A stretch of DNA of 64,000 nt from Pseudanabaena sp. FACHB-2040 (GTDB lineage Bacteria > Cyanobacteriota > Cyanobacteriia > Phormidesmidales > Phormidesmidaceae): contig NZ_JACJQO010000002.1 in assembly GCF_014696715.1 (NCBI RefSeq), positions 1 to 64,000 on the forward strand, in the 5' to 3' direction. The notes beneath the pieces were generated by a model. That model was not told where the DNA came from. It saw nothing but the letters and a program-made list of their open reading frames with translations, and did no database searches. This document shows positions 1,820 to 17,029 of the stretch, in pieces (the stretch's first letter is position 1; every line of letters starts with the position of its first letter). Made by a program: the position numbers and the translations under genes.

Positions 1820-1828
1820 GGAACGGCT

Positions 1829-2158
1829 TTACTGATCTTCCTCATCTAGGGCGTTATTTGACGGCTCATCGTAACCCAATTCCAGTTTTTGTTTGCCGTC
1901 TATGTCATTCTCTGAAAAATCAGTACGCTGCATTCGGTACTCGCCTTCACCCCGCAACTTATTTCCCTTAAAGACAACATTTACAGGTTTTTCATCCTGA
2001 ATGTCTTCTATTGCCTTCCCTTTGGCTTCCATCCTCGCTTGAATCGATCCTTCACGTCCATTGACGGAAAGCTCCAAAAGGCGATCACGGAAAACAAAAA
2101 CAACAATAAGCGCAACGAGTGCAATAATCCCTGCAACTACAACAACAGTTGTGTCCAT
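1829..2158 (-). CDS. Small one-TM protein with a DFSENDI element
   Basis: An ATG at 2158 gives 109 residues; an in-frame GTG at 2164 is an alternative. A single hydrophobic helix covers about residues 4-25 (VVVVAGIIALVALIVVFVF), followed by a basic stretch and a soluble tail. The tail has a beta-rich element: VVFKGNKLRGEGEY, then DFSENDIDGKQKLELG, ending in an acidic C-terminus. The GNKxR and DFSENDI parts match those inside the ATPase 9 bases downstream, so the two products may contact each other through this element. No enzymatic domain is recognised. It could be the membrane anchor or the membrane-acting effector of the cassette. Confidence 0.75.
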   Translation of the reverse strand: MDTTVVVVAGIIALVALIVVFVFRDRLLELSVNGREGSIQARMEAKGKAIEDIQDEKPVNVVFKGNKLRGEGEYRMQRTDFSENDIDGKQKLELGYDEPSNNALDEEDQ

Positions 2159-2993: not shown

Positions 2994-3224
2994 TCATTCC
3001 CCCGGCAGCTCATCCGTCATCGCCCAGATGATGCTCGTTCCGGCCATAACGGCTAAGACGAGTAGCAACATGGCTCGTTCAATCGGCCCAAGGGCGGCTA
3101 GCACCGTTCTCGGCGCAACAGAAGCTGCTATCGAAACCGCTGAGATAGGAATAGCCAAAAATAGCCATTGCTCCTCTGTCCAAGGTTTGCGAGGCATAAA
3201 AATAACAGAGCGCTGATACTGCAT
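2994..3224 (-). CDS. Hypothetical small membrane protein
   Basis: About 76 residues from ATG 3224 (a second ATG at 3197 gives the more typical N-terminus MPRKPWTEEQW). Two hydrophobic segments, LFLAIPISAVSIAASVA and AMLLLVLAVMAGTSIIWAM, are separated by a short loop with PRT and PIER, suggesting a two-helix membrane protein. No family recognised and no good Shine-Dalgarno sequence. It stands alone between a plus-strand hypothetical gene and the HU gene. Confidence 0.4.
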   Translation of the reverse strand: MQYQRSVIFMPRKPWTEEQWLFLAIPISAVSIAASVAPRTVLAALGPIERAMLLLVLAVMAGTSIIWAMTDELPGE

Positions 3225-3427
3225 TCTAGTGAGAGCCAACCCTGGGGCACCTCCGCCTAGTGAGCCATGCGGCTCTAGCGATAGAAAGGATTATGTCTCT
3301 AGCAGCGCCCAAGCTGAACTAAAATTGACCCATTAATTTTCACTGTAGCGCTCGCCTAATCCCGCAATTTCGGATCCATTTTCAAATTACCGACCTAATT
3401 TCGCTACTGATTTGTTTCAAAGCTCTT

Positions 3428-3477
3428 GAAACCCTGATTCTCTCGTGTTAAAACGGCTGAAACCCTCATTTTTTCGT
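3428..3477 (+). promoter_or_regulatory. 31-bp-spaced direct repeats in front of the HU gene
   Basis: GAAACCCTGATTCTCTCGT starts at 3428 and GAAACCCTCATTTTTTCGT at 3459, a spacing of 31 bp or about three helical turns. The second copy ends four bases before the HU start codon. Its 17-base core AACCCTGATTCTCTCGT recurs at 43448. This is either a regulatory site or part of a dispersed repeat. Confidence 0.5.
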
Positions 3478-3481
3478 CACC

Positions 3482-3757
3482 ATGAACAAAGCAGAATTGA
3501 TCGACAAAGTTGCTGAGAAAGCCAACGTTACTAAAAAGGAGGCTGATGCCCTAATCTCGGCCTTTACCGAATCCGTTGTGGAAGCCGTTGCCGAAGGGCA
3601 AAAGGTAACTCTGGTGGGCTTCGGCACGTTTGAGCCTCGGGCTCGGGCAGAGCGCGAAGGCCGCAACCCCAAAACAGGCGAAGCGATGAAGATCCCAGCT
3701 AGCACCGTCCCTGTCTTCAGCGCCGGAAAACTGTTTAAAGAGAAGGTAGGGAGCTAA
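3482..3757 (+). CDS. hup: Nucleoid-associated DNA-binding protein HU
   Basis: A 91-residue bacterial HU/IHF family protein of normal length. The N-terminal helix-turn-helix dimer interface (MNKAELIDKVAEKANVTKKE) is followed by the GFGTFEPRARAEREGRNPKTGE arm region with the conserved GRNP tip and a closing helix (FSAGKLFKEKV). HU bends and wraps DNA and organises the nucleoid as a dimer. The gene is monocistronic, ended by a strong hairpin 23 bases after the stop codon. The start ATG has no clear Shine-Dalgarno sequence; repeated motifs sit directly in front of it. Confidence 0.97.
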   Translation: MNKAELIDKVAEKANVTKKEADALISAFTESVVEAVAEGQKVTLVGFGTFEPRARAEREGRNPKTGEAMKIPASTVPVFSAGKLFKEKVGS

Positions 3758-3779
3758 ACACTTCCACTGATGCTTTAAT

Positions 3780-3818
3780 CCCCCCTGCTGTCCTAGATAG
3801 GCTGGCAGGGGGGATTTT
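3780..3818 (+). terminator. Rho-independent-type terminator after HU
   Basis: A nine-pair GC-rich stem (CCCCCCTGC at 3780 with GCAGGGGGG ending at 3813), a 16-base loop and a short ATTTTAA tail. It may also serve the convergent minus-strand gene. Confidence 0.85.
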
Positions 3819-3850
3819 AAGTGTGTACATCAACCGACCATCCGAATCTG

Positions 3851-4081
3851 CTAAAGAGCAATCTCATCCCAGTCATTGATACACATTATCCAAAGCAGCC
3901 GCCGCGCCTGCTCTTGGGCCTCTTTAGGCGTCAGATCAGGCATGGAGTTCTGAATCTTTTGGGTGATGAGCCTCTCCTTGCTAGACAGGAGGTTGCTTTC
4001 GGTTTTGAGCCTACGGTGCTCATCAAGCATTCCTTGAATGTAATCTTCCTTGGCTTGCTCGTCTGAGGCGGAGTTATCCAT
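3851..4081 (-). CDS. Hypothetical small helical protein
   Basis: 76 residues from ATG 4081, acidic and charged, predicted almost wholly helical (KEDYIQGMLDEHRRLKTE, then SSKERLITQKI). It contains a PDLTPKEAQEQARRLL stretch and an aromatic tail (WIMCINDWDEIAL). No signal peptide, membrane segment or known domain is seen. It converges on the HU terminator. No family recognised; reality is supported by codon composition and length only. Confidence 0.5.
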   Translation of the reverse strand: MDNSASDEQAKEDYIQGMLDEHRRLKTESNLLSSKERLITQKIQNSMPDLTPKEAQEQARRLLWIMCINDWDEIAL

Positions 4082-4205
4082 GTATGAGTGGATGAGTAGT
4101 GAATATAAGCGAAAATAGCTGTAAGTCAGAGTTAGCTTGCCGAGCCCCTAATCTGAGCTTTCTGACACCATTGCCACAACGCTTCGTGGCAATGGCAAGA
4201 CTGGG

Positions 4206-4451
4206 CTACTCTGCCTCTGCCTCCGCCTCTGCCTCTGCAACTACCTCAATAGTTACTGGGAAGGCTCCTCGAATCCAGTCGAGACTAACTGGGCTGTCGG
4301 TATCAAGCTGTAGCCATTTGACTGAGGGTAATTGAATGGCTAAGCACGGGAGAGACTTGATAATCTCTACCCGGTTCTCACGAGTACCGTCAGAGAGAAC
4401 TCGAACTAAATTAACAAGACCTTCTGGGTCATCAATGAAGAAAATTTGCAT
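4206..4451 (-). CDS. Hypothetical protein ending in an (Ala-Glu)n tail
   Basis: The ATG at 4451 is preceded by AGAAAGGAT, a reasonable ribosome binding site, so it is preferred over an upstream TTG at 4469. The 81-residue product begins MQIFFIDDPEGLVNLV and ends in five consecutive Ala-Glu pairs written in GCAGAG/GCGGAG hexamers directly before the stop. No membrane segment and no known domain is recognised. The tail length could vary by slippage of the 6-bp repeat. Confidence 0.5.
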   Translation of the reverse strand: MQIFFIDDPEGLVNLVRVLSDGTRENRVEIIKSLPCLAIQLPSVKWLQLDTDSPVSLDWIRGAFPVTIEVVAEAEAEAEAE

Positions 4452-4773
4452 TTTATCCTTTCTGAGCAAACGTGTATGAGGATATTGCAGGTTTAGCCAC
4501 CAATATCCTTTTATTTAGTGCAATTTCTCAGAGTACGGCCTAACCGACCAAACACGACCACAAGGTTTTGATTTTTATTAGAGCGTCACACGCTGGTCAT
4601 CTTCTGCAAATTCAAACTGAATTTTTTGCTGATGTATAAAACTCAGTAGAGTTTTGCTTTTCAGGGAACACGGTAGAATTGCGATCGCACCCCCTTTACC
4701 CTTCAACGTTTTGGAGGCAAAAGGCCTTTAAAGCCGCAAATCTTAGCCTTACCCGATTGGGGCTAACTTAGGG
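4452..4773. other. Intergenic stretch, no gene seen
   Basis: AT-rich spacer upstream of the minus-strand hypothetical gene ending at 4206 and downstream of the secreted-protein gene. It holds one HIP1 palindrome (4681) and no open frame or RNA gene that I can support. Confidence 0.5.
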
Positions 4774-5235
4774 CTAGGGCGTGTAAAGGTTAGGGCACAT
4801 CTCCTGAATAGACTGCAGCCCGTTATTAGGGCTGAGCTGATCCAAGGCGGCGGCTGGATTGCCCGGAGCAATTGTTGGAGCAGCATTATAGGCAGCAATA
4901 CTGGCCTCTTGGATGGCGTCATTGTGGGATCTTCCTCCACGCCGCGCATCACAATACCCATCTGCAAAGCCTGAGGCTATGGTTATGCCGCTCTCACCGC
5001 TTCCAGTCCCAGTAGATGGAAGGGTGCTATTTGAGGGAGCAGCCTCATTTGAGGGGGTGCCGGGCTGCGACGTTTGGGGTGCTGAAGGCGTTTGAGTTCC
5101 GCAGATCGTCCTCAGGTCAACCACACCACCCTGAGCATCGACCATATAACACAAGGAGTCGTAGGCCGCAGCAGGCGGTGTACTGGCGATTCCGGCTAAC
5201 AGAGCTGAGCCCAACGCAATTGGCAATAGTTTCAT
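4774..5235 (-). CDS. Secreted hypothetical protein with Pro/Ser/Thr linker
   Basis: From ATG 5235 (a GTG seven codons upstream is possible) the protein has 153 residues. Residues 1-24 form a signal peptide (MKLLPIALGSALLAGIAS, cleavage after PPAAA). Next comes a small domain with two cysteines (DSLCYMVDAQGG, LRTICG), then a Ser/Thr/Pro/Gly linker and a C-terminal part with two more cysteines (YCDARRGGRS, EMCPNLY). Four cysteines in an exported protein suggest disulfides. No known family recognised. Probably periplasmic or extracellular. Confidence 0.6.
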   Translation of the reverse strand: MKLLPIALGSALLAGIASTPPAAAYDSLCYMVDAQGGVVDLRTICGTQTPSAPQTSQPGTPSNEAAPSNSTLPSTGTGSGESGITIASGFADGYCDARRGGRSHNDAIQEASIAAYNAAPTIAPGNPAAALDQLSPNNGLQSIQEMCPNLYTP

Positions 5236-5433
5236 GAAGATAGGCTTTTGAATCACTACTTACAAAGACAGACGCCGTTAGCGTTCCCCGGAAAACACCC
5301 GAGATATCACGGAAGACATCGCTAGCCGGTTAACTTGAGGACTCGAGAAATCCTGTCAGCGGCTTACATCTCATCTGCCTGGGCTAAATCGCAGTTTGCA
5401 GAAGATTCAAATAATGATTTGCCTTTTCATCTA

Positions 5434-5459
5434 TGGGAGTCGTGAGGTGGGCACTCCCA
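5434..5459. terminator. Inverted repeat, weak terminator candidate
   Basis: TGGGAGT (5434-5440) pairs with ACTCCCA (5453-5459) around a 12-base loop, about 40 bases past the stop of the small gene at 5499. No T-run follows on either strand. Confidence 0.35.
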
Positions 5460-5498
5460 GACTTTGCACTAACGGCCTTTCCTGGCCTCGATAGAAAA

Positions 5499-5762
5499 TC
5501 AGGAGTCATCCTCAGGAGTCGCCTTGCGAGACTTGGGCCGACTCAGCAAAAACCACCAAACCTCCAGCCCAATTAGCCCCAATCCTCCGACTGTCACAGC
5601 GGTTTTTGCCCAGAGTGGTTGCTCAATTCGGCGAAAGCCACCTACTTCAACCGGAGTAGGCTGCGTTTCGTGATGGGGCATTTGGGCTGGGGTGCCGCTT
5701 GCCAGTCCTAGGAGCAGACCTAAACTGGCAAGGGTACTGACGATAAAAAGTTTGCGTTTCGT
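5499..5762 (-). CDS. Small membrane protein beside copA, apparent ACG start
   Basis: The frame is open from an in-frame TAA just upstream of 5762 and has no ATG, GTG or TTG before an internal ATG at 5681, yet the codons before that ATG form a perfect signal peptide (KRKLFIVSTLASLGLLLGLA, then SGTPAQ). An AGGAG ribosome binding site (5771-5775) lies 8 bases before the codon ACG at 5762, so translation probably begins there; ACG is one transition from ATG. The 87-residue product has a His-rich segment (PHHE), a TM helix (TVGGLGLIGLEVWWFLLS) and a short tail. I recall similar anchors at the front of cupredoxin-domain proteins next to cyanobacterial copA genes; no cupredoxin domain follows here. 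Confidence 0.6.
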   Translation of the reverse strand, partial: TKRKLFIVSTLASLGLLLGLASGTPAQMPHHETQPTPVEVGGFRRIEQPLWAKTAVTVGGLGLIGLEVWWFLLSRPKSRKATPEDDS

Positions 5763-5821
5763 AAGAGTATCTCCTAGTTATGGGGCAAGACCGACTTCAA
5801 GAGCAATGAGCTACGCAGCCA

Positions 5822-8077
5822 TTACCCCTGCAGCCGAGGCCGAAAGTTTCGCAGCCTCAGCGCATTGGTCACCACAGAAACCGAGCTAAAGGCCATCGCC
5901 GCTCCAGCAATAATCGGACTGAGCAGCCAGCCAAAGATGGGATAGAGAATCCCGGCTGCAATCGGAATGCCAGCAACGTTGTAAATAAAAGCAAAAAACA
6001 GGTTTTGCCGAATATTTTGCATGGTGGCGCGAGAGAGCTGAATGGCTGTAACAATGCCCTGCAAGTCACCAGAGATCAAAGTAATGTCGCTGGCGGCAAT
6101 GGCAACATCGGTGCCGGTGCCAATAGCCATGCCCACATCAGCTTGGGCCAGCGCCGGAGCATCGTTAATGCCATCGCCTACCATAGCCACCACCCGGCCC
6201 TCAGCCTGCAGGTGCTCGATCTGGGCAGCTTTTTGGTCGGGCCGCACTTCGGCAATCACCCGGCCAATGCCCACTTCGCGGGCAATTACTTCTGCTGTGC
6301 GGCGGTTGTCGCCGGTCAGCATCACCACTTCTAAATGCATCCGCTGCAGCGTGCGAATTGCCTGCAGTGAAGAAGGCTTAACCGCATCGGCAATGCCCAT
6401 GATGGCTTCTATCTGACCGTCTACGGCAATCCAAATAACGGTTCGGCCTAGGTCTTCTAATCGGTTCCACGGTTGCTGTAGAGCGCTTGTGTTTATCCCC
6501 AGTTCTCCCATCCAGCGCTGAGTGCCAATCTGCACGCGGTGGCCCGACACATCGCCCTGCACACCGCTACCTGCGATCGCTTCAAAGTCTTGGGCCTCGA
6601 TCAGGCTCACTTCCTGAGACTGGGCATATTGCACCACGGCTTCCGCCAGGGGATGCTCAGAGTTGCGTTCAACTGAACCTGCCAGCTGTAGCCACTTCAG
6701 TTCGCTGGCGGTGCCGTTGACGGTTACATAGTCGGTGACAACTGGCTTGCCCTGGGTAATTGTGCCGGTCTTATCCAGCACAATTGTTTGGATCTTGTGA
6801 GCCAGTTCTAGGCTGTCTGCGCCTTTGATTAAGATGCCGTTTTCTGCACCTTTGCCCGTTCCAACCATGATGGAGGTCGGGGTCGCTAGACCCAAGGCAC
6901 AGGGACAGGCAATAATCAGCACCCCGACCGTCGTTACTAGGGCCATCGTCACGTTGCCCATGATGTTGTACCAGATCACGAAGGTTGCGATCGCAATGCC
7001 AATCACTGCCGGCACAAACCAACCAGTCACTCGGTCAGCTAGCTTTTGAATTGGGGCTTTAGACCCTTGAGCCTGCTGCACCAGCTTGACGATCTGGGCC
7101 AAAAAGGTATCTTTACCCACGCGGGTTGCTCGAAATTTAAAGCTGCCAGTTTTATTAATCGTGGCTCCGATCACTTCATCACCGGGGCGTTTTTTGACCG
7201 GCACACTTTCTCCAGTCACCATCGATTCATCAATGGTCGATCCCCCTTCGACAATGCTGCCATCCACCGGGATTTTTTCACCCGGACGAACAACCACAAT
7301 GTCATTGAGCTGAACCGATTCAATCGGCACCTCCAACTCCTGACCCGATCGAATAATGCGAGCCGTGCGAGCCTGTAGCCCAATCAGCTTACGAATGGCG
7401 TCAGAGGTCTGCCCCTTGGCCCGGTTCTCCAGCAGTCGCCCCAGCAAAATTAAGGTGATCACCACCGCAGAAATTTCGTAATAGACGGCAGGCTCTAACC
7501 CCTGAGCTAGAAAAAAATCTGGAAGAAAAGTAGGCAGTAGGGAATAAAAAAAGGCGGCACTGGTTCCCAACGCAACCAGCGTATCCATCGTCGCGCTGCG
7601 GCGCTTGAAGGCTTTCCAGGCTCCGGTATAAAACGATTCACCGCTCCAAAACTGAATCGGAATTGTCAGCACCAGCTGCAGCCAAGGATTATGCAGCCAC
7701 CCCGGAATCCAGGGCAAAGGCAGCCCGGTCATCATCGGCAGCCCGCCAATCACTAAAATGCTGGTGACCACAGCGCCCAAAATCAGCCGTCGCTTGAGCT
7801 TGTTTAACTCAGCTGAGCGCGCCGATTGTTCAGCATCTGTTTCCCCCGTCACCATCTCTTGGTCTTGGAGGAAAAAGGCCGAATACCCCGCTTCTTCAAC
7901 CGCGTTTTGAATGTCTTCTGCGTTTGTTTTTTTAGCGTCGTACTCAACTAATGCTTGCTCTGCACCAAAGTTAACGCTGCACTCGCTGACGCCCGGAACC
8001 GCACGAATGGCCTCTTCGACGCTCCTAGCACAGGAGGCGCAGCTCATGCCTCGCAGTTTAAAGATTGTGCTTTCCAT
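5822..8077 (-). CDS. copA: Cu(I)-transporting P-type ATPase
   Basis: 751 residues from ATG 8077, chosen because the preceding in-frame codons are not typical and the N-terminal metal domain starts right here ([14 protein letters not shown]). Features in order: one heavy-metal-associated domain with GMSCASC, eight TM helices, actuator TGES, the metal-binding CPC in TM6 ([12 protein letters not shown]), DKTGTIT phosphorylation site, SEHPLA, and [10 protein letters not shown]. The last two TMs carry YN and MAFSSVSVV, the residues of Cu(I) specificity. It moves Cu(I) across the plasma or thylakoid membrane; export versus supply of plastocyanin (CtaA/PacS-like) cannot be told from sequence. A small membrane gene follows 59 bases downstream. 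Confidence 0.95.
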
Positions 8078-8473
8078 AATTCCATCCCGATGCCACACTG
8101 GCATGCTAAACCCTCCAGAGCAGTGGAGAGTCAAGGAGGCTGCTAGTCCACCAGTGAGAGCGGCGGGAGTGGGCTAAGTGCGATCGCACTCTGCTAAACG
8201 GGTAGCCTCAAAAAGTGCAGGCTGGCAGATCAGTGTCACATAGCTATAGCCATATGGGCTAGATTGGCCCTACCATAGCCACAAAATGTATTGGACCCCT
8301 GCTTTCCGGAGCCCTAACTAAAGCGGTGAAATTTATAATTTGGCCACTGAAATTAAGTCTGTTCCGGGACTTTCACGACTAGGGGTTGCTTTTTTGTCGA
8401 TGGCGTATAATTGCAAAACTTGCGACAGACCCTAGGCCCAAATCCCTTTAGTACCCGCAGTTAGATAGACACC
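8078..8473. promoter_or_regulatory. Divergent promoter region of copA and the PBP gene
   Basis: About 400 bp between divergent genes. A TATAAT box at 8406-8411 lies 63 bases before the PBP start; no well-placed -35 was found. A HIP1 site lies at 8182. I could not identify a copper-responsive operator. Confidence 0.45.
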
Positions 8474-10396
8474 GTGTCAACAACCATTCGGCGAACGCGA
8501 TCGCAGCCTCAGCCCATCCGGCGCTCCCCTAAACTTCTAAAATATATTCAGGATGTCGGCCAGATTACAGCTGCAACCCTGCTGGGCACCACCATGATTG
8601 CCAGTTCTGTGGTGGCTGGGGGACTGGTCGGACTGGCCATCAGCTTTCGCAACTTGCCAGATGTGCGGGTGCTGCGTAACTACGTCCCTAGCGAAACCAG
8701 CTACATCTACGACATCAAAGGCACCCTGCTCTACAGCCTGCACGACGAGGCCAACCGCGAGGTGGTGGACCTCAACGAAATCTCTCCCCACCTAAAGCGA
8801 GCAGTGCTGGGCATCGAAGATAGCTACTTCTACTCCCATAACGGCATCAACCCCAGCAGCGTCGGGCGGGCCGTGCTCGCCAACTTCCAGGCTGGCTCCA
8901 CCGTCGAAGGGGGTTCCACCGTCACCATGCAGCTGGTAAAAAACCTGTTTCTAACCCCAGAGCGAGCCATTAGCCGTAAGGTGGCTGAGGCAGTACTGGC
9001 CCTACGTCTAGAGCAAATTTTTGCCAAAGACGAAATCCTGGAAATGTATCTAAACCAGGTGTATTGGGGCCACAACAACTACGGAGTAGAAACGGCAGCC
9101 CAAACCTACTTCAATAAATCCGCCAAAGATCTCAATCTAGCCGAATCAGCGGTGATGGCCGGTCTGATTCAGGCCCCCGAAAACTACAGCCCCTTTGTTA
9201 ACTACGAGTTTACAAAGCAGCGGCAGGCCACTGTACTCAGCCGCATGCGGCAGCTGGGCTGGATTACGGCTGAAGAAGAAACCGCAGCCCGCAATCAGCC
9301 CTTGATGATTGGTGAAATTAAGTCCTTCCGCTCCAGCATCGCGCCCTACGTCACTGAGGCAGCTGTGCAGGAGCTAAAAGAGAAATTTGGCAATGAGTCG
9401 GTGCTCAAGGGCGGCATGCGGGTGCAGACGACAGTTGACCTAAACCTACAGCGTATCGCTGAAGAAACGGTCAGTCGCAACCATGCGGCTTTGCGCCAGC
9501 GGGGCCTCTATGCCGATCAAATGGCGCTAGTGGCGGTTGATCCGCGCACCCACTTTGTCAAAGCTATGGTCGGCGGTGTAGATCACACCACCAGCCAGTT
9601 CAACCGCGCTATTCAAGCCCATCGGCAGCCGGGGTCAGCCTTCAAGCCCTTTGTCTACTATGCCGGGTTTGCCTCAGGCCGTTACACGCCCGACAGCCTC
9701 ATTGCCGATACCCCCGTCAGCTACCCCGATGGCTACGAATACTACAGCCCCAAGAACTACGACAGCACCTTCATGGGGAATATCCCCATTCGTCGTGCCC
9801 TAGAAGTCTCCCGCAACGTTCCGGCTATTCGGCTGGGGCAGGCCGTTGGTATCAATCAGATTATCGAACTCTGCCGCACTTTGGGCATCAAGAGCCCTAT
9901 GGAGCCCGTCATTTCTCTACCGCTGGGCGCGGTCGATCTAACGCCTATGGAGATGGCTGGGGCCTATGCAACGTTTGCTAGCAATGGTTGGCACTCGCCA
10001 CCCACCTTCATCGTGCAAGTCACCGACAGCAGCGGCAACGTCATTCTAGACAACACCCCTCGACCTCAGCTAGTGCTCGATCCGTGGGCAGCAGCAGCAC
10101 TCAATGATGTTCTCCAGGGTGTCGTTACCCGAGGCACTGGGACGGCCGCTCAGATCGGCCGGCCTGCTGCTGGTAAAACTGGTACCACCGATGCTCAGCG
10201 AGATATCTGGTTTGTTGGGTACGTGCCGCAGTTAGCAACGGCAATTTGGGTCGGCAATGATAACTATAGCCCGTTAGGAGTAGGGGCTACAGGCGGTGGC
10301 TACGTAGCTCCCGTGTGGCGTGATTTCATGCAGCAAGCCTTGGCCGACGAGCCCGTAGAAGGGTTCCGCCCTCCCTCAGATTTCGTCAGGCCCTAA
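8474..10396 (+). CDS. Class A penicillin-binding protein (bifunctional PBP1A type)
   Basis: 640 residues from GTG 8474. An N-terminal cytoplasmic tail is followed by a TM helix (about residues 35-60), a GT51 glycosyltransferase domain with the catalytic EDSYFYSHNGI and EGGSTVTMQLVKN motifs, and a transpeptidase domain with SAFK (acyl-serine), SRN and KTGTT. It polymerises lipid II into glycan strands and cross-links the stem peptides in the periplasm. Length is normal for a cyanobacterial PBP1A-like enzyme without extra C-terminal domains. It is monocistronic and converges on the DUF1825 gene 31 bases away. Confidence 0.95.
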   Translation: MSTTIRRTRSQPQPIRRSPKLLKYIQDVGQITAATLLGTTMIASSVVAGGLVGLAISFRNLPDVRVLRNYVPSETSYIYDIKGTLLYSLHDEANREVVDLNEISPHLKRAVLGIEDSYFYSHNGINPSSVGRAVLANFQAGSTVEGGSTVTMQLVKNLFLTPERAISRKVAEAVLALRLEQIFAKDEILEMYLNQVYWGHNNYGVETAAQTYFNKSAKDLNLAESAVMAGLIQAPENYSPFVNYEFTKQRQATVLSRMRQLGWITAEEETAARNQPLMIGEIKSFRSSIAPYVTEAAVQELKEKFGNESVLKGGMRVQTTVDLNLQRIAEETVSRNHAALRQRGLYADQMALVAVDPRTHFVKAMVGGVDHTTSQFNRAIQAHRQPGSAFKPFVYYAGFASGRYTPDSLIADTPVSYPDGYEYYSPKNYDSTFMGNIPIRRALEVSRNVPAIRLGQAVGINQIIELCRTLGIKSPMEPVISLPLGAVDLTPMEMAGAYATFASNGWHSPPTFIVQVTDSSGNVILDNTPRPQLVLDPWAAAALNDVLQGVVTRGTGTAAQIGRPAAGKTGTTDAQRDIWFVGYVPQLATAIWVGNDNYSPLGVGATGGGYVAPVWRDFMQQALADEPVEGFRPPSDFVRP

Positions 10397-10427
10397 AGGT
10401 CATCAAACCCTAGCGATTTATCAAACC

Positions 10428-10745
10428 CTAGGAGTCGATTTCGGCTTTCATGCGCTCTAGGGTTTGATTCATTTGCTCAAACATTTTGTCCGGAGTCATA
10501 CCAAACTGGCCGAGTTGAGTTTTGAGCTGTTCTACAGTCATTTGAGCCGAAAAATCTTCAGACAGTTCAAATCGCTTCATGAAGATGCGATAACGGTCCA
10601 TAACCGATTCCATCTGCTCAATAAACAGCTTTTTTCCCTCTCGGTCAAATTTGCCATAGCCGCTTCCTAGCTGCGTCAGCGACTGGTAGTCCTGAAACAG
10701 CTGCATAGCTTCTCTTTGAACTAGCTCAGAATCAAAAAATCCCAT
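10428..10745 (-). CDS. DUF1825 family protein
   Basis: A 105-residue cytoplasmic protein beginning MGFFDSELVQREAMQLFQ. The stretch GKFDREGKKLFIEQME and the C-terminal MTVEQLKTQLGQFGMTP match what I remember as DUF1825, a family nearly universal in cyanobacteria and of unknown function. Mostly helical, no membrane segment or signal peptide. Its 3' end overlaps a short direct repeat (ATCAAACCCTAG at 10402 and 10420). Transcribed away from the J-domain gene upstream on the same strand, with a 100-base gap. Confidence 0.85.
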   Translation of the reverse strand: MGFFDSELVQREAMQLFQDYQSLTQLGSGYGKFDREGKKLFIEQMESVMDRYRIFMKRFELSEDFSAQMTVEQLKTQLGQFGMTPDKMFEQMNQTLERMKAEIDS

Positions 10746-10846
10746 TTCTCTTTTAGGTTTTTAACTCAATTAGTCGCTCTGTATCTACTAGCGTATTGAT
10801 TTCAGAGCCTTTGGCCAAGGAGAGAAAACCCTACTTTTAATTTGGG

Positions 10847-11767
10847 TTACCGTTTGGAAAAAAGACCGCCAAACAGTCTCCACCGCTTCTCATTTTTGGG
10901 GGGCTGAGCAGCAGAGGCCGGTCTGCTGAACTGAGAGTCGTCAATCTGCAGTTGACGCGCGTATTTTAGAGCAACTTCATTCTTGGGATTGAGCTTGAGC
11001 GCCTGCTTGAAGTGGACTTTGGCCATGCCGGAAAGCTGGCTGAGCAGATAGGCTTGTCCCAAAAGACAGTGATACGAACTGTTTTGGGGATCGATTTTGA
11101 CTGCATCTTTAAGCTCTTGGATGGCCGCTGAGAAATTGCGGTTTTTCAGGTACTCCTGGGCTCGCTTGGAATGGCGTTCCGCGTAGTTAGGGCTCGCACC
11201 GTCGTTGGTTGGGGCAGTAGGCGCAACAGCCGTGGTATTTACGCTAGAGGCAGCAACCAGTCCGCTCCGTTTTTCCCGAATGACCGGCTCACCCATCTTG
11301 CGGCGCAGATAGACGAGATTAAGCTCACTGATCTGCCGGGTAAGGGTTTCAAATGTTTCAGAACTGTCGTACTGGTTGGTGCTGAGGTCTAATAGGGCCT
11401 GCTCGTAGTAGATTTCGATCTCAGGTTCGGGAAGCTGCAGCAGCTTTTGGGCAGCCTCACAGGTAGCCTTTAAAGCGTCCTCTCGGGCCAATCGTCGTAC
11501 CTTGAATCGGAGGGTTGCCAAAACCTCGTTGCGGCCTTTGTCGCTTTTGAGCCGCTGGTAGGCAGGGTTGACCAACCGAGCCAGTACTTGACCGGCAAAT
11601 TCATTGATCCCAGTCTCTTGGCTAGCCTGAACATCGGGGTGCAGCAGTTTAGCAACTTGCCGGTAGCGCTTGAGAATACGGCGATCATCTGCCGCAAGGG
11701 AAACCCCCAGAACAGCGTAGGGATCAGAAAAGCGGAGCCAGTCTTGGGAAAAGGAGGGATGGGCCAT
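10847..11767 (-). CDS. J-domain protein with TPR repeats
   Basis: 306 residues. An N-terminal J domain (about residues 14-75: DPYAVLGVSLAADDRRILKR, with the HPD signature in LLHPDVQ) is the part that stimulates Hsp70/DnaK ATPase. A helical middle region follows, then about two TPR units near residues 205-275 (RAQEYLKNRNFSAAIQELKD, LNPKNEVALKYARQL) and a basic C-terminus. It has no zinc-finger or substrate domains of canonical DnaJ, so it is probably a specialised DnaK co-chaperone whose TPRs choose clients. Confidence 0.85.
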   Translation of the reverse strand: MAHPSFSQDWLRFSDPYAVLGVSLAADDRRILKRYRQVAKLLHPDVQASQETGINEFAGQVLARLVNPAYQRLKSDKGRNEVLATLRFKVRRLAREDALKATCEAAQKLLQLPEPEIEIYYEQALLDLSTNQYDSSETFETLTRQISELNLVYLRRKMGEPVIREKRSGLVAASSVNTTAVAPTAPTNDGASPNYAERHSKRAQEYLKNRNFSAAIQELKDAVKIDPQNSSYHCLLGQAYLLSQLSGMAKVHFKQALKLNPKNEVALKYARQLQIDDSQFSRPASAAQPPKNEKRWRLFGGLFSKR

Positions 11768-12068
11768 CCAGAGGGAAAGATGAGGGTACTTGGGAACTAA
11801 CTTAGGGGCGTCGGGGTAAGACGGTTTCAGTCATAGGCTCGGCAGAGGTCAAGAAAGGCGTATAAAAACATTAGTGACATCAGGGTTTATACGGAGACTC
11901 TAGCAAATCTCCTGTCTGAGCACCATAATCCTGTCTTCTTAAAAATTGGGAAAGCAGCAGGAACTTCCTAAGGAACTTCCTAAATAAAATTATGCTCCAC
12001 CGGTTCCCGTGTTGTTCTGGTTCATGGGGTTTATACTGACCGATTAAGGCGTTGTTGCTGAAATAGAT
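11768..12068. other. Divergent intergenic region, no gene seen
   Basis: About 300 bp between the J-domain gene and the TM2 gene, containing both promoters by position. No clear boxes, hairpins or open frames that I can support. Confidence 0.4.
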
Positions 12069-12452
12069 ATGGAAAGTCGGTTGCGAAATCGGCGTGTGGC
12101 AGCTTCTCTAGCCTTGCTCGGGGCGTTGATGCCAGGAGCTCTGCCGCTATCTGGGCTGCATAAGTTTTATATGGGGCAGCCCCTTTGGGGTATTGCTTAT
12201 CTTCTACTGGGTTGGACCCAGATTCCCAGAATTGCCTGTGCGATTGAGGGATTTTGGTACCTGAGCCAAAATGAAGCGGGCTTTAAAGCTCGCTTCGGCG
12301 GTACTGAGACGATCGCAATACCAGATAAGGCCGAACAGGTCAGTGCGATCGCAACCGCCCTGCGGGAACTCGATCAGCTGCGCCAGGAAGGGCTGATCTC
12401 AGAGCATGAGTTTGAGCAAAAGCGGCGCGTCCTGCTAGATCAGGTGGGTTAG
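12069..12452 (+). CDS. TM2 domain protein with C-terminal SHOCT-like helix
   Basis: 127 residues. The N-terminal half holds the TM2 pattern: a first helix (ASLALLGALMPGALPLSG), the LHKFYMGQPLWGI turn and a second helix (AYLLLGWTQIPRIACAIEGF). The C-terminal 35 residues (ALRELDQLRQEGLISEHEFE followed by a basic run) match the SHOCT oligomerisation motif. A membrane protein of unknown role. The helix-hairpin-helix gene follows 38 bases later and is probably co-transcribed. Confidence 0.8.
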   Translation: MESRLRNRRVAASLALLGALMPGALPLSGLHKFYMGQPLWGIAYLLLGWTQIPRIACAIEGFWYLSQNEAGFKARFGGTETIAIPDKAEQVSAIATALRELDQLRQEGLISEHEFEQKRRVLLDQVG

Positions 12453-12490
12453 CGGTAGGTTAGAAGTGGCCTAGAGAGTAGGTTAGATAA

Positions 12491-13039
12491 ATGTCGCTAG
12501 ACCAGCCCAAGAGCCCCTTCATCAAGCTCAGGGGGCAACTTAATCCGCTGCGCCAGCGGCTGCAGTCAGACCCCTATTGCCGCCTGCAGTCTTACCAAGA
12601 GGTGAAGCTGGCAGCCGAGCTAGGGTTTTGTCTAGACGTGAACCGAGCCACGGTGGACGACTGGCTGCGGCTGCCAGGACTGTCGATTCACCAGGCGCGA
12701 TCGCTAGTAAGCCTGAGTCACGCGGGAGTTGCATTTCACTGCTTAGAGGATGTAGCCGCTGCACTAGGGATGCCTCCAGCAGCGCTCACACCGCTTTTGC
12801 CGGTGCTAGATTTTCGCTACTACGACCCAGCCGAAGCAGCTGGTCTGGTGCCAGTGAGGGTGAATCAAGCCACGGTAGACGATCTTTGTCAGGTTCCCCG
12901 AATAGATCCGCAGACGGCCCGAGCCATTATCTACGATCGCAACTGGCGAGGCCCCTTTCAAAACGCTGCCGAGTTTCAGCAGCGGCTACATGTGCCGCCC
13001 GATTGGATGGCACATTTGATACACTACTTGCGCTTCTAA
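12491..13039 (+). CDS. Helix-hairpin-helix protein, ComEA-like repeats
   Basis: 182 residues with two helix-hairpin-helix units written almost alike: VNRATVDDWLRLPGLSIHQA (about residues 52-72) and VNQATVDDLCQVPRIDPQTA (about 124-144), each in the ComEA/UvrC-like form that binds the DNA backbone without sequence preference. Unlike ComEA there is no signal peptide or membrane anchor, so it is probably cytoplasmic. Downstream of the TM2 gene in the same direction. Function not known; DNA binding is inferred from the fold. Confidence 0.75.
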   Translation: MSLDQPKSPFIKLRGQLNPLRQRLQSDPYCRLQSYQEVKLAAELGFCLDVNRATVDDWLRLPGLSIHQARSLVSLSHAGVAFHCLEDVAAALGMPPAALTPLLPVLDFRYYDPAEAAGLVPVRVNQATVDDLCQVPRIDPQTARAIIYDRNWRGPFQNAAEFQQRLHVPPDWMAHLIHYLRF

Positions 13040-13125
13040 AAATTGCGAAAGCACCCCTTACCTTCTGTCCTCTGCCTTGTTGGGTCGCGCTACGCTTGAC
13101 GCCAACCTACAGTGCCTTTCATTCT

Positions 13126-14079
13126 TCACCTAAACCGACCCACAAACCGATCCGTCGCCTCAACTAGCTCATGAACAATCCCAGGCTCAGTGGCAGAGTG
13201 ACCAGCATCGGGAACCAGGATAAACTCGGCTTCAGGCCAGGCACGGTGCAGCTCCCAAGCGGTGATCGCGGGGCAGACAACATCGTAGCGACCCTGAACG
13301 ATAACGCCAGGAATATGGCGAATCGGCTCTACATTTTTGAGAAGCTGGTAGTCGGGCTCGAAAAAGCCTTGGTGAATAAAGTAGTGGCACTCGATTCGAG
13401 CAAAAGCCACCGCAAAATCATCACTGCCAAAGCGCTCGATTAGATCGGTGTCTGGAATAAGTTTGCTGGTGCTGGCCTCCCAGACAGACCAGGCGCGGGC
13501 AGCCTGAAGGCGGGTTGCCCGATCAGGACTGGTAAGGCGCTGATAGTAGGCTTTGACCAGGTCGTGCCGTTCCTCGGAGGGAATGGGCTCTAGGTAGCGT
13601 TCCCAGGCGTCGGGAAAGAGGTAGCTGGCCCCTTCTTGGTAAAACCACTGAATTTCCTTTTGCCGCAGGGTGAAGATGCCGCGCAGAATGAGCCCCTGAC
13701 AGCGATCGGGGTAGGTCTGGCTATAGGCCAGCGCCAGCGTGCTGCCCCAGCTGCCGCCAAAAACAGTCCAGCGCTCGATATTGAGGTGCGATCGCAGCTT
13801 TTCAATATCCTCCACCAGGTCCCAGGTAGTGTTTTCTTCCAGTTCAGCGTGAGGGCGACTAAGGCCGCAGCCCCGCTGATCAAATAGCACAATCCGCCAT
13901 CTCTGCGGGTCAAAAAACTGCCGATAGAGGGGAATAGTGCCGCCCCCAGGCCCCCCGTGGAGAAACACCACCGGCTGGCCTTGGGGGTTACCAGATTCTT
14001 CGAAGTAGAGGGTGTGGAGGCGGGAGACGGGAAGAAAACCAGTGCGGTAAGGGCTGATGGGGGGATAGAGCGATCGCAT
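13126..14079 (-). CDS. pip: Proline iminopeptidase
   Basis: 317 residues from ATG 14079; upstream in-frame codons are Cys/Trp-rich and unlike the family. Alpha/beta-hydrolase (peptidase S33) with the oxyanion loop HGGPGGG, the FDQRGCGLSRPH motif, the nucleophile elbow GGSWGS, an aspartate in GRYDVVCP and the histidine in GHSATEP. It removes N-terminal proline from peptides in the cytoplasm. Length matches the bacterial family (about 315). Converges on the helix-hairpin-helix gene. Confidence 0.95.
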   Translation of the reverse strand: MRSLYPPISPYRTGFLPVSRLHTLYFEESGNPQGQPVVFLHGGPGGGTIPLYRQFFDPQRWRIVLFDQRGCGLSRPHAELEENTTWDLVEDIEKLRSHLNIERWTVFGGSWGSTLALAYSQTYPDRCQGLILRGIFTLRQKEIQWFYQEGASYLFPDAWERYLEPIPSEERHDLVKAYYQRLTSPDRATRLQAARAWSVWEASTSKLIPDTDLIERFGSDDFAVAFARIECHYFIHQGFFEPDYQLLKNVEPIRHIPGVIVQGRYDVVCPAITAWELHRAWPEAEFILVPDAGHSATEPGIVHELVEATDRFVGRFR

Positions 14080-14254
14080 ATCTTGGGGGCACCTAAAGGA
14101 GCAGCCTTGGAAAATCCAAAAGATCCATAGACTACCGTCATTGTGGCAGCCATTGGCATAGGCTGTCACACTGGAATGCCCACCGCTGTTCCTTCTAGGG
14201 AACCTGCAACGACCTCTGACGGAAGCGTGTCAGACGAATCGGTTTGCGGAGGTC

Positions 14255-14353
14255 TTAGATCGGAGACTTTACCACGCACCACCTCCCAGTTTCAGGGTCG
14301 CGGTAGGTGACAAACGGGTTTTGCTTTAAAGGCTTATCGCAGGGTTTCGTCAT
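14255..14353 (-). CDS. Micro-ORF with NPFVTYRDPETGRW motif
   Basis: A 32-residue frame from ATG 14353 to TAA 14255: MTKPCDKPLKQ, then NPFVTYRDPETGRWCVV and a short end. The NPFxTYRDPxTGxWxVV pattern is one I recall from tiny cyanobacterial hypothetical proteins, and the composition is much more protein-like than chance. No Shine-Dalgarno sequence is evident. It lies 175 bases upstream of the pip start on the same strand, so it may share a transcript with pip. Function unknown. Confidence 0.55.
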   Translation of the reverse strand: MTKPCDKPLKQNPFVTYRDPETGRWCVVKSPI

Positions 14354-14890
14354 CGTTTAACAGGAAGTCTCGCCTGTCACTATCTTAGGAAGTGAAGCAA
14401 GTGTTTCCTGGTGACGCCCCCAGCGTTTTTTAGTGATAGATCTGGGCTCTAATAGTGACCCAAATCACATTTTTCTCTGCTTAGGATTTTGCCCTAGAGA
14501 TACTGTTGATTAAACTAAATTGTTTGTGGCTTGCTATCAAGAGGGTGGGTTCAGGTGAATCGGCTTTCTTGCTGCTTTTAACTGCTTATATTCTCGGTTG
14601 TTCAAGAGCGATCTGTATCAAGTTCTGACAAAGCTTTTGCCTACAACCGTAAAAGCTGTAAAAAGATTCCGTAGTCGCATAAGTTTCAAGCTCGACCTTG
14701 GACATGGCTCCTTACCCAGATTCTCCTCATAGCCGTGTGTCACCGTTCGCTCATATAGACGGGAAACAGTGTCACAAGGGGATCCGGCGTCACTTGGGGG
14801 TCGCTCACAGCGACGTCAGTCTGTTAATCTTCAATCATCGTTACATAATATTAAGAACGCCCCTGCCGTTTATAGATGAGGAGACTCCCG
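14354..14890. other. Intergenic region upstream of glgX
   Basis: About 540 bp. A short perfect hairpin (GTCGC-TCACA-GCGAC, 14800-14814) and several GTCAC repeats lie 80-150 bases before the glgX start; a GAGGAG ribosome binding site begins at about 14877. Open frames here overlap the glgX start and look like chance. Confidence 0.4.

Positions 14891-17029
<2,139 letters not shown>

What the first reader, a model, noticed from the sequence alone, without database searches (positions are those of the whole stretch)
5499..5775. copA neighbour appears to start at ACG
A complete signal peptide sits between an in-frame stop and the first ATG, with no ATG, GTG or TTG available. A well-spaced AGGAG lies 8 bases before ACG, followed by KRKLF, which would read MKRKLF with one T-to-C change. 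Either a true rare start codon keeps expression low, or the start was lost by mutation. The protein looks like the membrane anchor of copper cupredoxin proteins without the cupredoxin domain (this comparison is from memory).
Basis: partly seen in the sequence, partly recalled or inferred. Interest (0 to 1): 0.55.

Follow-up and report, generated by a model that had tools for sequence, protein, structure and literature searches.

The report
Copper gene with lost start codon
In a cyanobacterium, a small membrane-protein gene beside a copper-export pump reads ACG where its relatives read ATG as the start signal, most likely a recent mutation that weakens or silences it, although weak use of the unusual start or a sequencing mistake cannot be excluded.

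Summary
On the minus strand (5777-5499) a frame has no ATG, GTG or TTG between its upstream stop and the internal ATG 5681, and AGGAG lies 8 bases before ACG 5762. The only other genome held of the genus carries the orthologue in the same place after copA, with ATG aligned to this ACG. A full-length paralogue in the same genome also has ATG there. Of 72 other distinct homologues read, 70 have an ATG and 2 only GTG or TTG. The frame evolved under purifying selection (dN/dS about 0.2) without excess change in this lineage, so the change is recent or the gene still works.

The protein is the two-helix membrane anchor of a CupA-like copper chaperone without its cupredoxin domain; the paralogue's cupredoxin matches pneumococcal CupA. 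Anchor-only versions recur behind copA in other cyanobacteria.

Best reading: a recent ATG-to-ACG substitution that strongly reduces or abolishes translation. Weak true ACG initiation and sequence error stay open: no second genome of this species, reads or peptides were available.

The parts
5499..5762 (-). anchor-only CupA-like gene, read from ACG: 87 residues, signal-type helix plus a second membrane helix
5760..5762 (-). ACG at the place of the start codon (ATG in the congener and in the own paralogue)
5771..5775 (-). AGGAG, Shine-Dalgarno-like, 8 bases before the ACG
5778..5780 (-). in-frame stop TAA upstream
5679..5681 (-). first in-frame ATG, an internal Met of the (G)TPAQM segment; no AGGAG at normal spacing
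5541..5603 (-). second hydrophobic segment (residues 54-74), strongly conserved (IEQPLW...GLGLIGLEVWWF)
5822..8077 (-). copA, copper-translocating P-type ATPase with one HMA domain, 59 bases before the ACG on the same strand (ATG start shared with the congener)

Best explanation
The gene is the membrane anchor of a CupA-like copper chaperone whose cupredoxin domain was lost, sitting behind copA. Its ancestral ATG start was changed to ACG by one recent T-to-C transition in the lineage of this genome, after it split from its congener. The ribosome-binding site, signal helix and reading frame are otherwise intact, so the transcript should still bind ribosomes, but ACG should start translation only very poorly, so the allele is a strong down-mutation or an incipient pseudogene. 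Loss may be tolerated because the genome keeps a full-length paralogue beside a MerR-type regulator. Shown: the ACG, the ATG in relatives, past purifying selection, copA adjacency, the paralogue. Inferred: direction and recency of the change, poor translation, tolerance through the paralogue.
For: The congener ATG aligns to the ACG without a gap in syntenic DNA. The own paralogue has ATG at the same aligned residue, 6 bases after its own AGGAG. Of 72 other distinct homologues read, 70 have ATG and 2 only GTG or TTG before the conserved part; none lacks all three. In the stretches of the window compared with the congener, 27 of 28 genes with both N-termini covered share a canonical start codon at the same aligned place; this gene is the exception (36 rows, 6 cut off at a contig end of the congener and 2 doubtful rows set aside). 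dN/dS to the congener is 0.20 over codons 2-87 (Fisher P 6.5e-8), and amino-acid changes are not in excess on this lineage: 11 against 11, 3 ties, the start residue included. Neutral drift over 40% or more of the branch is disfavoured (P 0.026; at 30% P is 0.056).
Against: No frameshift, stop or excess of amino-acid changes shows decay yet, which equally fits a gene still translated from ACG. The AGGAG and the A-rich codons after the ACG are intact. dN/dS here (0.23) is second highest among the 28 genes compared, so constraint was loose but present. Only one assembly of this species was available, so sequence error is not excluded.
Confidence: 0.56

Rival explanations
1. ACG is a true but weak start. 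The strong AGGAG and spacing let initiator tRNA start at ACG at low rate, so that little of the anchor is made relative to CopA, and the gene stays under selection.
For: AGGAG-N8-ACG is well placed. The frame shows past purifying selection including the signal helix (dN/dS 0.17 for codons 2-26) and no lineage-specific excess of changes. A passage in PMC9845219 reports that petA with its AUG changed to ACG among other codons altered cytochrome f levels in Chlamydomonas chloroplasts.
Against: No other homologue read uses ACG (0 of 72), so it is not a conserved control device. No other gene of the 28 compared has a non-canonical start. From memory, ACG initiates far below AUG in E. coli; the measuring paper (Hecht 2017) was not held. 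Selection estimates cover the whole species split and cannot see what happened after the change.
Confidence: 0.22
2. The base at 5762-5760 is a sequencing or assembly error and the genome really has ATG.
For: A single-base difference from the congener, the paralogue and nearly all relatives. No reads and only one assembly of the species could be looked at.
Against: The assembly is 99.95% complete in 44 contigs, and the other 27 compared genes of the window have shared canonical starts, so there is no sign of poor base quality. From general knowledge, short-read consensus errors are rarer than true start-codon changes in dispensable genes (inference).
Confidence: 0.18
3. Translation begins at the internal ATG 5681 or another codon and gives a 60-residue protein with one helix.
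For: ATG 5681 is the first canonical start in the frame.
Against: No AGGAG at normal spacing. The product would lack the signal-type helix, which is conserved and under selection. Met at this place is an internal residue of the TPAQM segment in homologues that start upstream. No ATT or ATA lies near the AGGAG, and the ATC codon is about 23 bases from it.
Confidence: 0.04

Closest known systems
CupA of Streptococcus pneumoniae (membrane-attached cupredoxin copper chaperone of the cop operon; PDB 4f2e, 2mry)
   Same: Family placement: the own full-length paralogue matches CupA over the cupredoxin domain (E 1.3e-23), with Cys then CGMNM at the places of C74 and C111-x-M113-x-M115 (residues named in passages of PMC5646241; the alignment is). 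The gene sits beside copA in 68 of 73 distinct homologue loci, window included, as cupA lies in the pneumococcal copper-export operon.
   Different: The window protein has no cupredoxin domain and no copper site. The cyanobacterial anchor has two hydrophobic segments; CupA has one short leader (first 22 residues; passage). Its start codon reads ACG.
Genes with rare non-AUG starts (for example ATT in infC or pcnB of E. coli, from memory) and ACG starts of plant plastid genes restored by C-to-U editing (passage in PMC9845219)
   Same: A codon one base away from ATG stands where the start is expected.
   Different: No conservation of ACG among relatives, and no evidence of mRNA editing or of initiation at this codon.
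Start-lost incipient pseudogenes of bacteria
   Same: One disabling change in an otherwise intact frame whose relatives are intact.
   Different: No second disabling change yet; weak translation is not excluded.

Membership tests
CupA-type copper chaperone | cupredoxin domain with a Cys / CxMxM Cu(I) site | tested here: not met
   No Pfam hit and no solved-structure hit for the window protein. No cupredoxin remnant downstream: the one hit better than E 0.5 (12 residues, E 1.8e-4) covers the shared linker at the end of the anchor. The paralogue L031 does meet it.
CupA-type copper chaperone | N-terminal membrane attachment | tested here: met
   Two hydrophobic segments by Kyte-Doolittle, aligned with the anchor of full-length homologues. 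Topology itself was not tested.
CupA-type copper chaperone | encoded with the copper exporter copA | tested here: met
   59 bases after copA on the same strand; so placed in 68 of 73 distinct homologue loci.
Functional gene with ACG start | ribosome-binding site at normal spacing from ACG, with no other start available | tested here: met
   AGGAG-N8-ACG, no ATG, GTG or TTG in frame.
Functional gene with ACG start | ACG kept in relatives | tested here: not met
   0 of 72 other distinct homologues read; congener has ATG. No second isolate of the same species was available.
Functional gene with ACG start | protein shown to begin at this codon | not testable with these tools
   needs N-terminal peptides or initiation-site ribosome profiling
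Pseudogene | loss of purifying selection after the disabling change | tested here: inconclusive
   No lineage excess (11 v 11); only drift over roughly a third or more of the branch is disfavoured.

The most novel reading that the evidence does not exclude
The cell really translates this anchor from ACG. A strong AGGAG compensates a start codon with a mismatch in the middle base, setting anchor level far below CopA from one transcript; in the boldest form the ACG is turned to AUG in the mRNA, as in plant plastids. Either would be, to my knowledge, a very rare case in a free-living bacterium (the editing form has no supporting evidence here).
Probability: 0.2. Interest if true: 0.55.

Novelty: new variant of a known kind. 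Interest (0 to 1): 0.3.

Why it matters
If ACG is used, it is a clean natural test of how far a strong ribosome-binding site can rescue a start codon with a middle-base mismatch, in a gene whose normal ATG form and ATG paralogue are known. If it is a start loss, it is an ordinary mutation, but it exposes a neglected small protein: an anchor without copper site that recurs behind copA in cyanobacteria and stays under selection, which suggests that the CupA anchor has a role of its own beside CopA.

Tried and rejected
Cupredoxin remnant after the stop: not found in the window or in the congener. Internal start at 5681: judged unlikely. A second isolate of the species: the genus holds only this genome and one other; the family holds 63 genomes; the genome-contig scan gave 17 relatives and may leave out the window's own genome by its own notice. 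Papers: eight of the ten searches concerned start codons or start loss and two CupA. For papers I saw listings with abstract beginnings, and passages of PMC9845219, PMC11497404, PMC5646241, PMC13339759 and PMC5622118; no paper was read whole. In those listings I noticed no bacterial gene shown to start at ACG, which is no proof that none is published. A special initiator tRNA was not looked for. Structure prediction was not run.

I then fetched 18 matches that had not been read. Sixteen could be read; one (L110) is the same contig as L048. Of the 15 new ones 13 have ATG, L115 has only GTG before its hydrophobic stretch, and L104 has only GTG/TTG, no copA and an unrecognisable N-terminus. Two (L108, L117) gave no hit in my search and stay unread. 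The count is now 72, with 70 ATG.

Full report
What is there. On the minus strand a stop-to-stop frame runs from 5777 to 5499. Its upstream stop is TAA at 5780-5778 and it has no ATG, GTG or TTG before ATG 5681. AGGAG at 5775-5771 lies 8 bases before ACG 5762-5760; a complete AGGAG so placed is found for 744 of 127934 positions of the window. Read from the ACG, the protein has 87 residues with two hydrophobic segments, residues 3-25 and 54-74. The gene follows copA (5822-8077, start by comparison with the congener; I gave it from 8053, eight residues short) by 59 bases on the same strand. copA is a copper-type P-type ATPase by NCBIfam and Pfam.

Where the start should be. The genus has one other genome, G001, 78% complete in 680 contigs. 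Its contig C503 is collinear with the window from about 3000 to 14950. There the orthologue stands behind copA, and its ATG aligns to the ACG without a gap (M RHKRFIVSILASLG against T KRKLFIVSTLASLG). The own genome has a second, full-length copy on contig C8 (L031) behind a MerR-type regulator, with ATG at the same aligned residue and AGGAG six bases before it.

Other relatives. After removing three exact duplicates, 58 distinct loci including the window were read first: by script 55 have ATG before the middle of the signal helix, and two more (L024, L048), missed because of a shorter N-terminus, have it on inspection. Sixteen could be read and one was a duplicate; of 15, 13 have ATG, one has GTG only (L115) and one has GTG/TTG only, with an atypical N-terminus and no copA (L104). 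Two remain unread. So 72 of 72 other distinct homologues read have a canonical start, 70 of them ATG. copA lies before the gene on the same strand in 54 of the first 58 (the others are L031 and three loci under 1900 bases long) and in 14 of the 15 new ones.

Window control. Frames of the window were compared with nine congener contigs. Of 36 rows kept as coding (dS above 0.25 and dN/dS under 0.35), six are cut off at a contig end of the congener, and I set aside one doubtful 51-codon overlap and one paralogue with dS 3.08. Of the 28 left, by my reading of the table, 27 share a canonical start at the same aligned place near the N-terminus; only this gene does not. The filter selects for constrained frames, so decayed genes elsewhere would be missed.

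Selection. Over codons 2-87 against the congener dS is 0.83, dN 0.168, dN/dS 0.20 (Fisher P 6.5e-8); for codons 2-26 it is 0.17 (P 0.003). Of 25 residue differences, polarised by 16 other homologues, 11 are odd in this genome, 11 in the congener and 3 tie; the start residue is one of the 25. A simple calculation without the start residue disfavours neutral drift over 40% or more of this branch (P 0.026), and is borderline at 30% (P 0.056). So the change is young or the gene still works; these data cannot tell which.

What the protein is. The paralogue's cupredoxin domain hits Pfam Cupredoxin_1 (E 3e-24) and CupA of Streptococcus pneumoniae (2mry/4f2e, E 1.3e-23) and a relative (4f2f) in solved structures. 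The CupA copper ligands C74, C111, M113 and M115 (passages of PMC5646241) fall on Cys and CGMNM in that alignment. The window protein lacks this domain: no Pfam or solved-structure hit and no remnant after its stop. It is therefore an anchor-only derivative and not a member of the chaperone family by its defining site. No Pfam model covered the anchor in the window or in three anchor-only homologues at the gathering score (one sub-threshold signal-peptide hit), and one NCBIfam search of the window protein gave only a sub-threshold hit.

Anchor-only forms recur. 17 of the first 58 loci, the window included, lack a cupredoxin, and so do 9 of the 15 new ones. On a tree of 53 CopA C-termini the label needs 11 changes, at least 6 forced by well-supported branches, though the bootstrap had not settled. 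In 12 anchor-only genomes searched for the paralogue's cupredoxin, this genome has it; of the other 11, 9 have no match and 2 (G001, G056) have weak matches (29-31%) in frames of about 340 residues, a kind also present in this genome. Two other anchor-only pairs with usable estimates have dN/dS 0.21 and 0.24; a third pair is saturated at synonymous sites.

Mechanism. Inferred from CupA (PMC5646241 passages): the full-length protein hands Cu(I) to CopA at the membrane. If the first helix is a signal or N-in helix, the second would leave the C-terminus in the cytosol (positive residues after it), fitting CupA; this topology is inference. The anchor alone can bind no copper by the CupA site, so its kept sequence suggests contact with CopA or the membrane (inference). 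With ACG, the expectation is strongly reduced initiation. A passage of PMC11497404 gives AUG, GUG and UUG as 82%, 14% and 4% of starts in 69 genomes; [quoted passage not shown] The size of the ACG effect is from memory.

Verdict. Real observation; most likely a recent start-codon change in a small accessory gene, with weak use or sequence error not excluded. Interest is modest; the recurring anchor-only protein behind copA may be worth more than the start codon.

Noticed in passing
window 5499-5762; L002, L012, L018-L021, L028, L029, L034, L044, L048, L049, L055, L060-L062, L106, L107, L109, L111-L116: Anchor-only CupA-like proteins without copper site recur behind copA in cyanobacteria (17 of 58 loci, 9 of 15 more), apparently lost the cupredoxin several times, and stay under selection in the pairs that could be estimated.
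   Followed up: partly
L031 (G000:C8), 895-2073: The same genome has a full-length CupA-like protein behind a MerR-type regulator and away from copA within the 3.2 kb read; in several filamentous relatives copA, the chaperone and the MerR gene are together.
   Followed up: partly
window 5820-5822 (-) and L002 about 1828-1830 (-): copA's stop overlaps an ATG in both species. In the congener that ATG is in frame with the anchor gene and open up to it, giving a possible coupled, extended start; in the window it meets a stop after three codons.
   Followed up: no
window 4774-5238 (-): Next gene downstream: 154 residues with a signal-type N-terminus, kept in the congener (dN/dS 0.18), no Pfam hit and only a sub-threshold NCBIfam hit.
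   Followed up: no
L104 (G022:C17): A third CupA-like copy without copA nearby whose N-terminus is unrecognisable and has no ATG before the anchor helix; it may be a decayed or rearranged copy.
   Followed up: no
L097, L098, L099: Weakly similar cupredoxin domains (29-31%) in frames of about 340 residues in three genomes, this one included; identity not examined.
   Followed up: no
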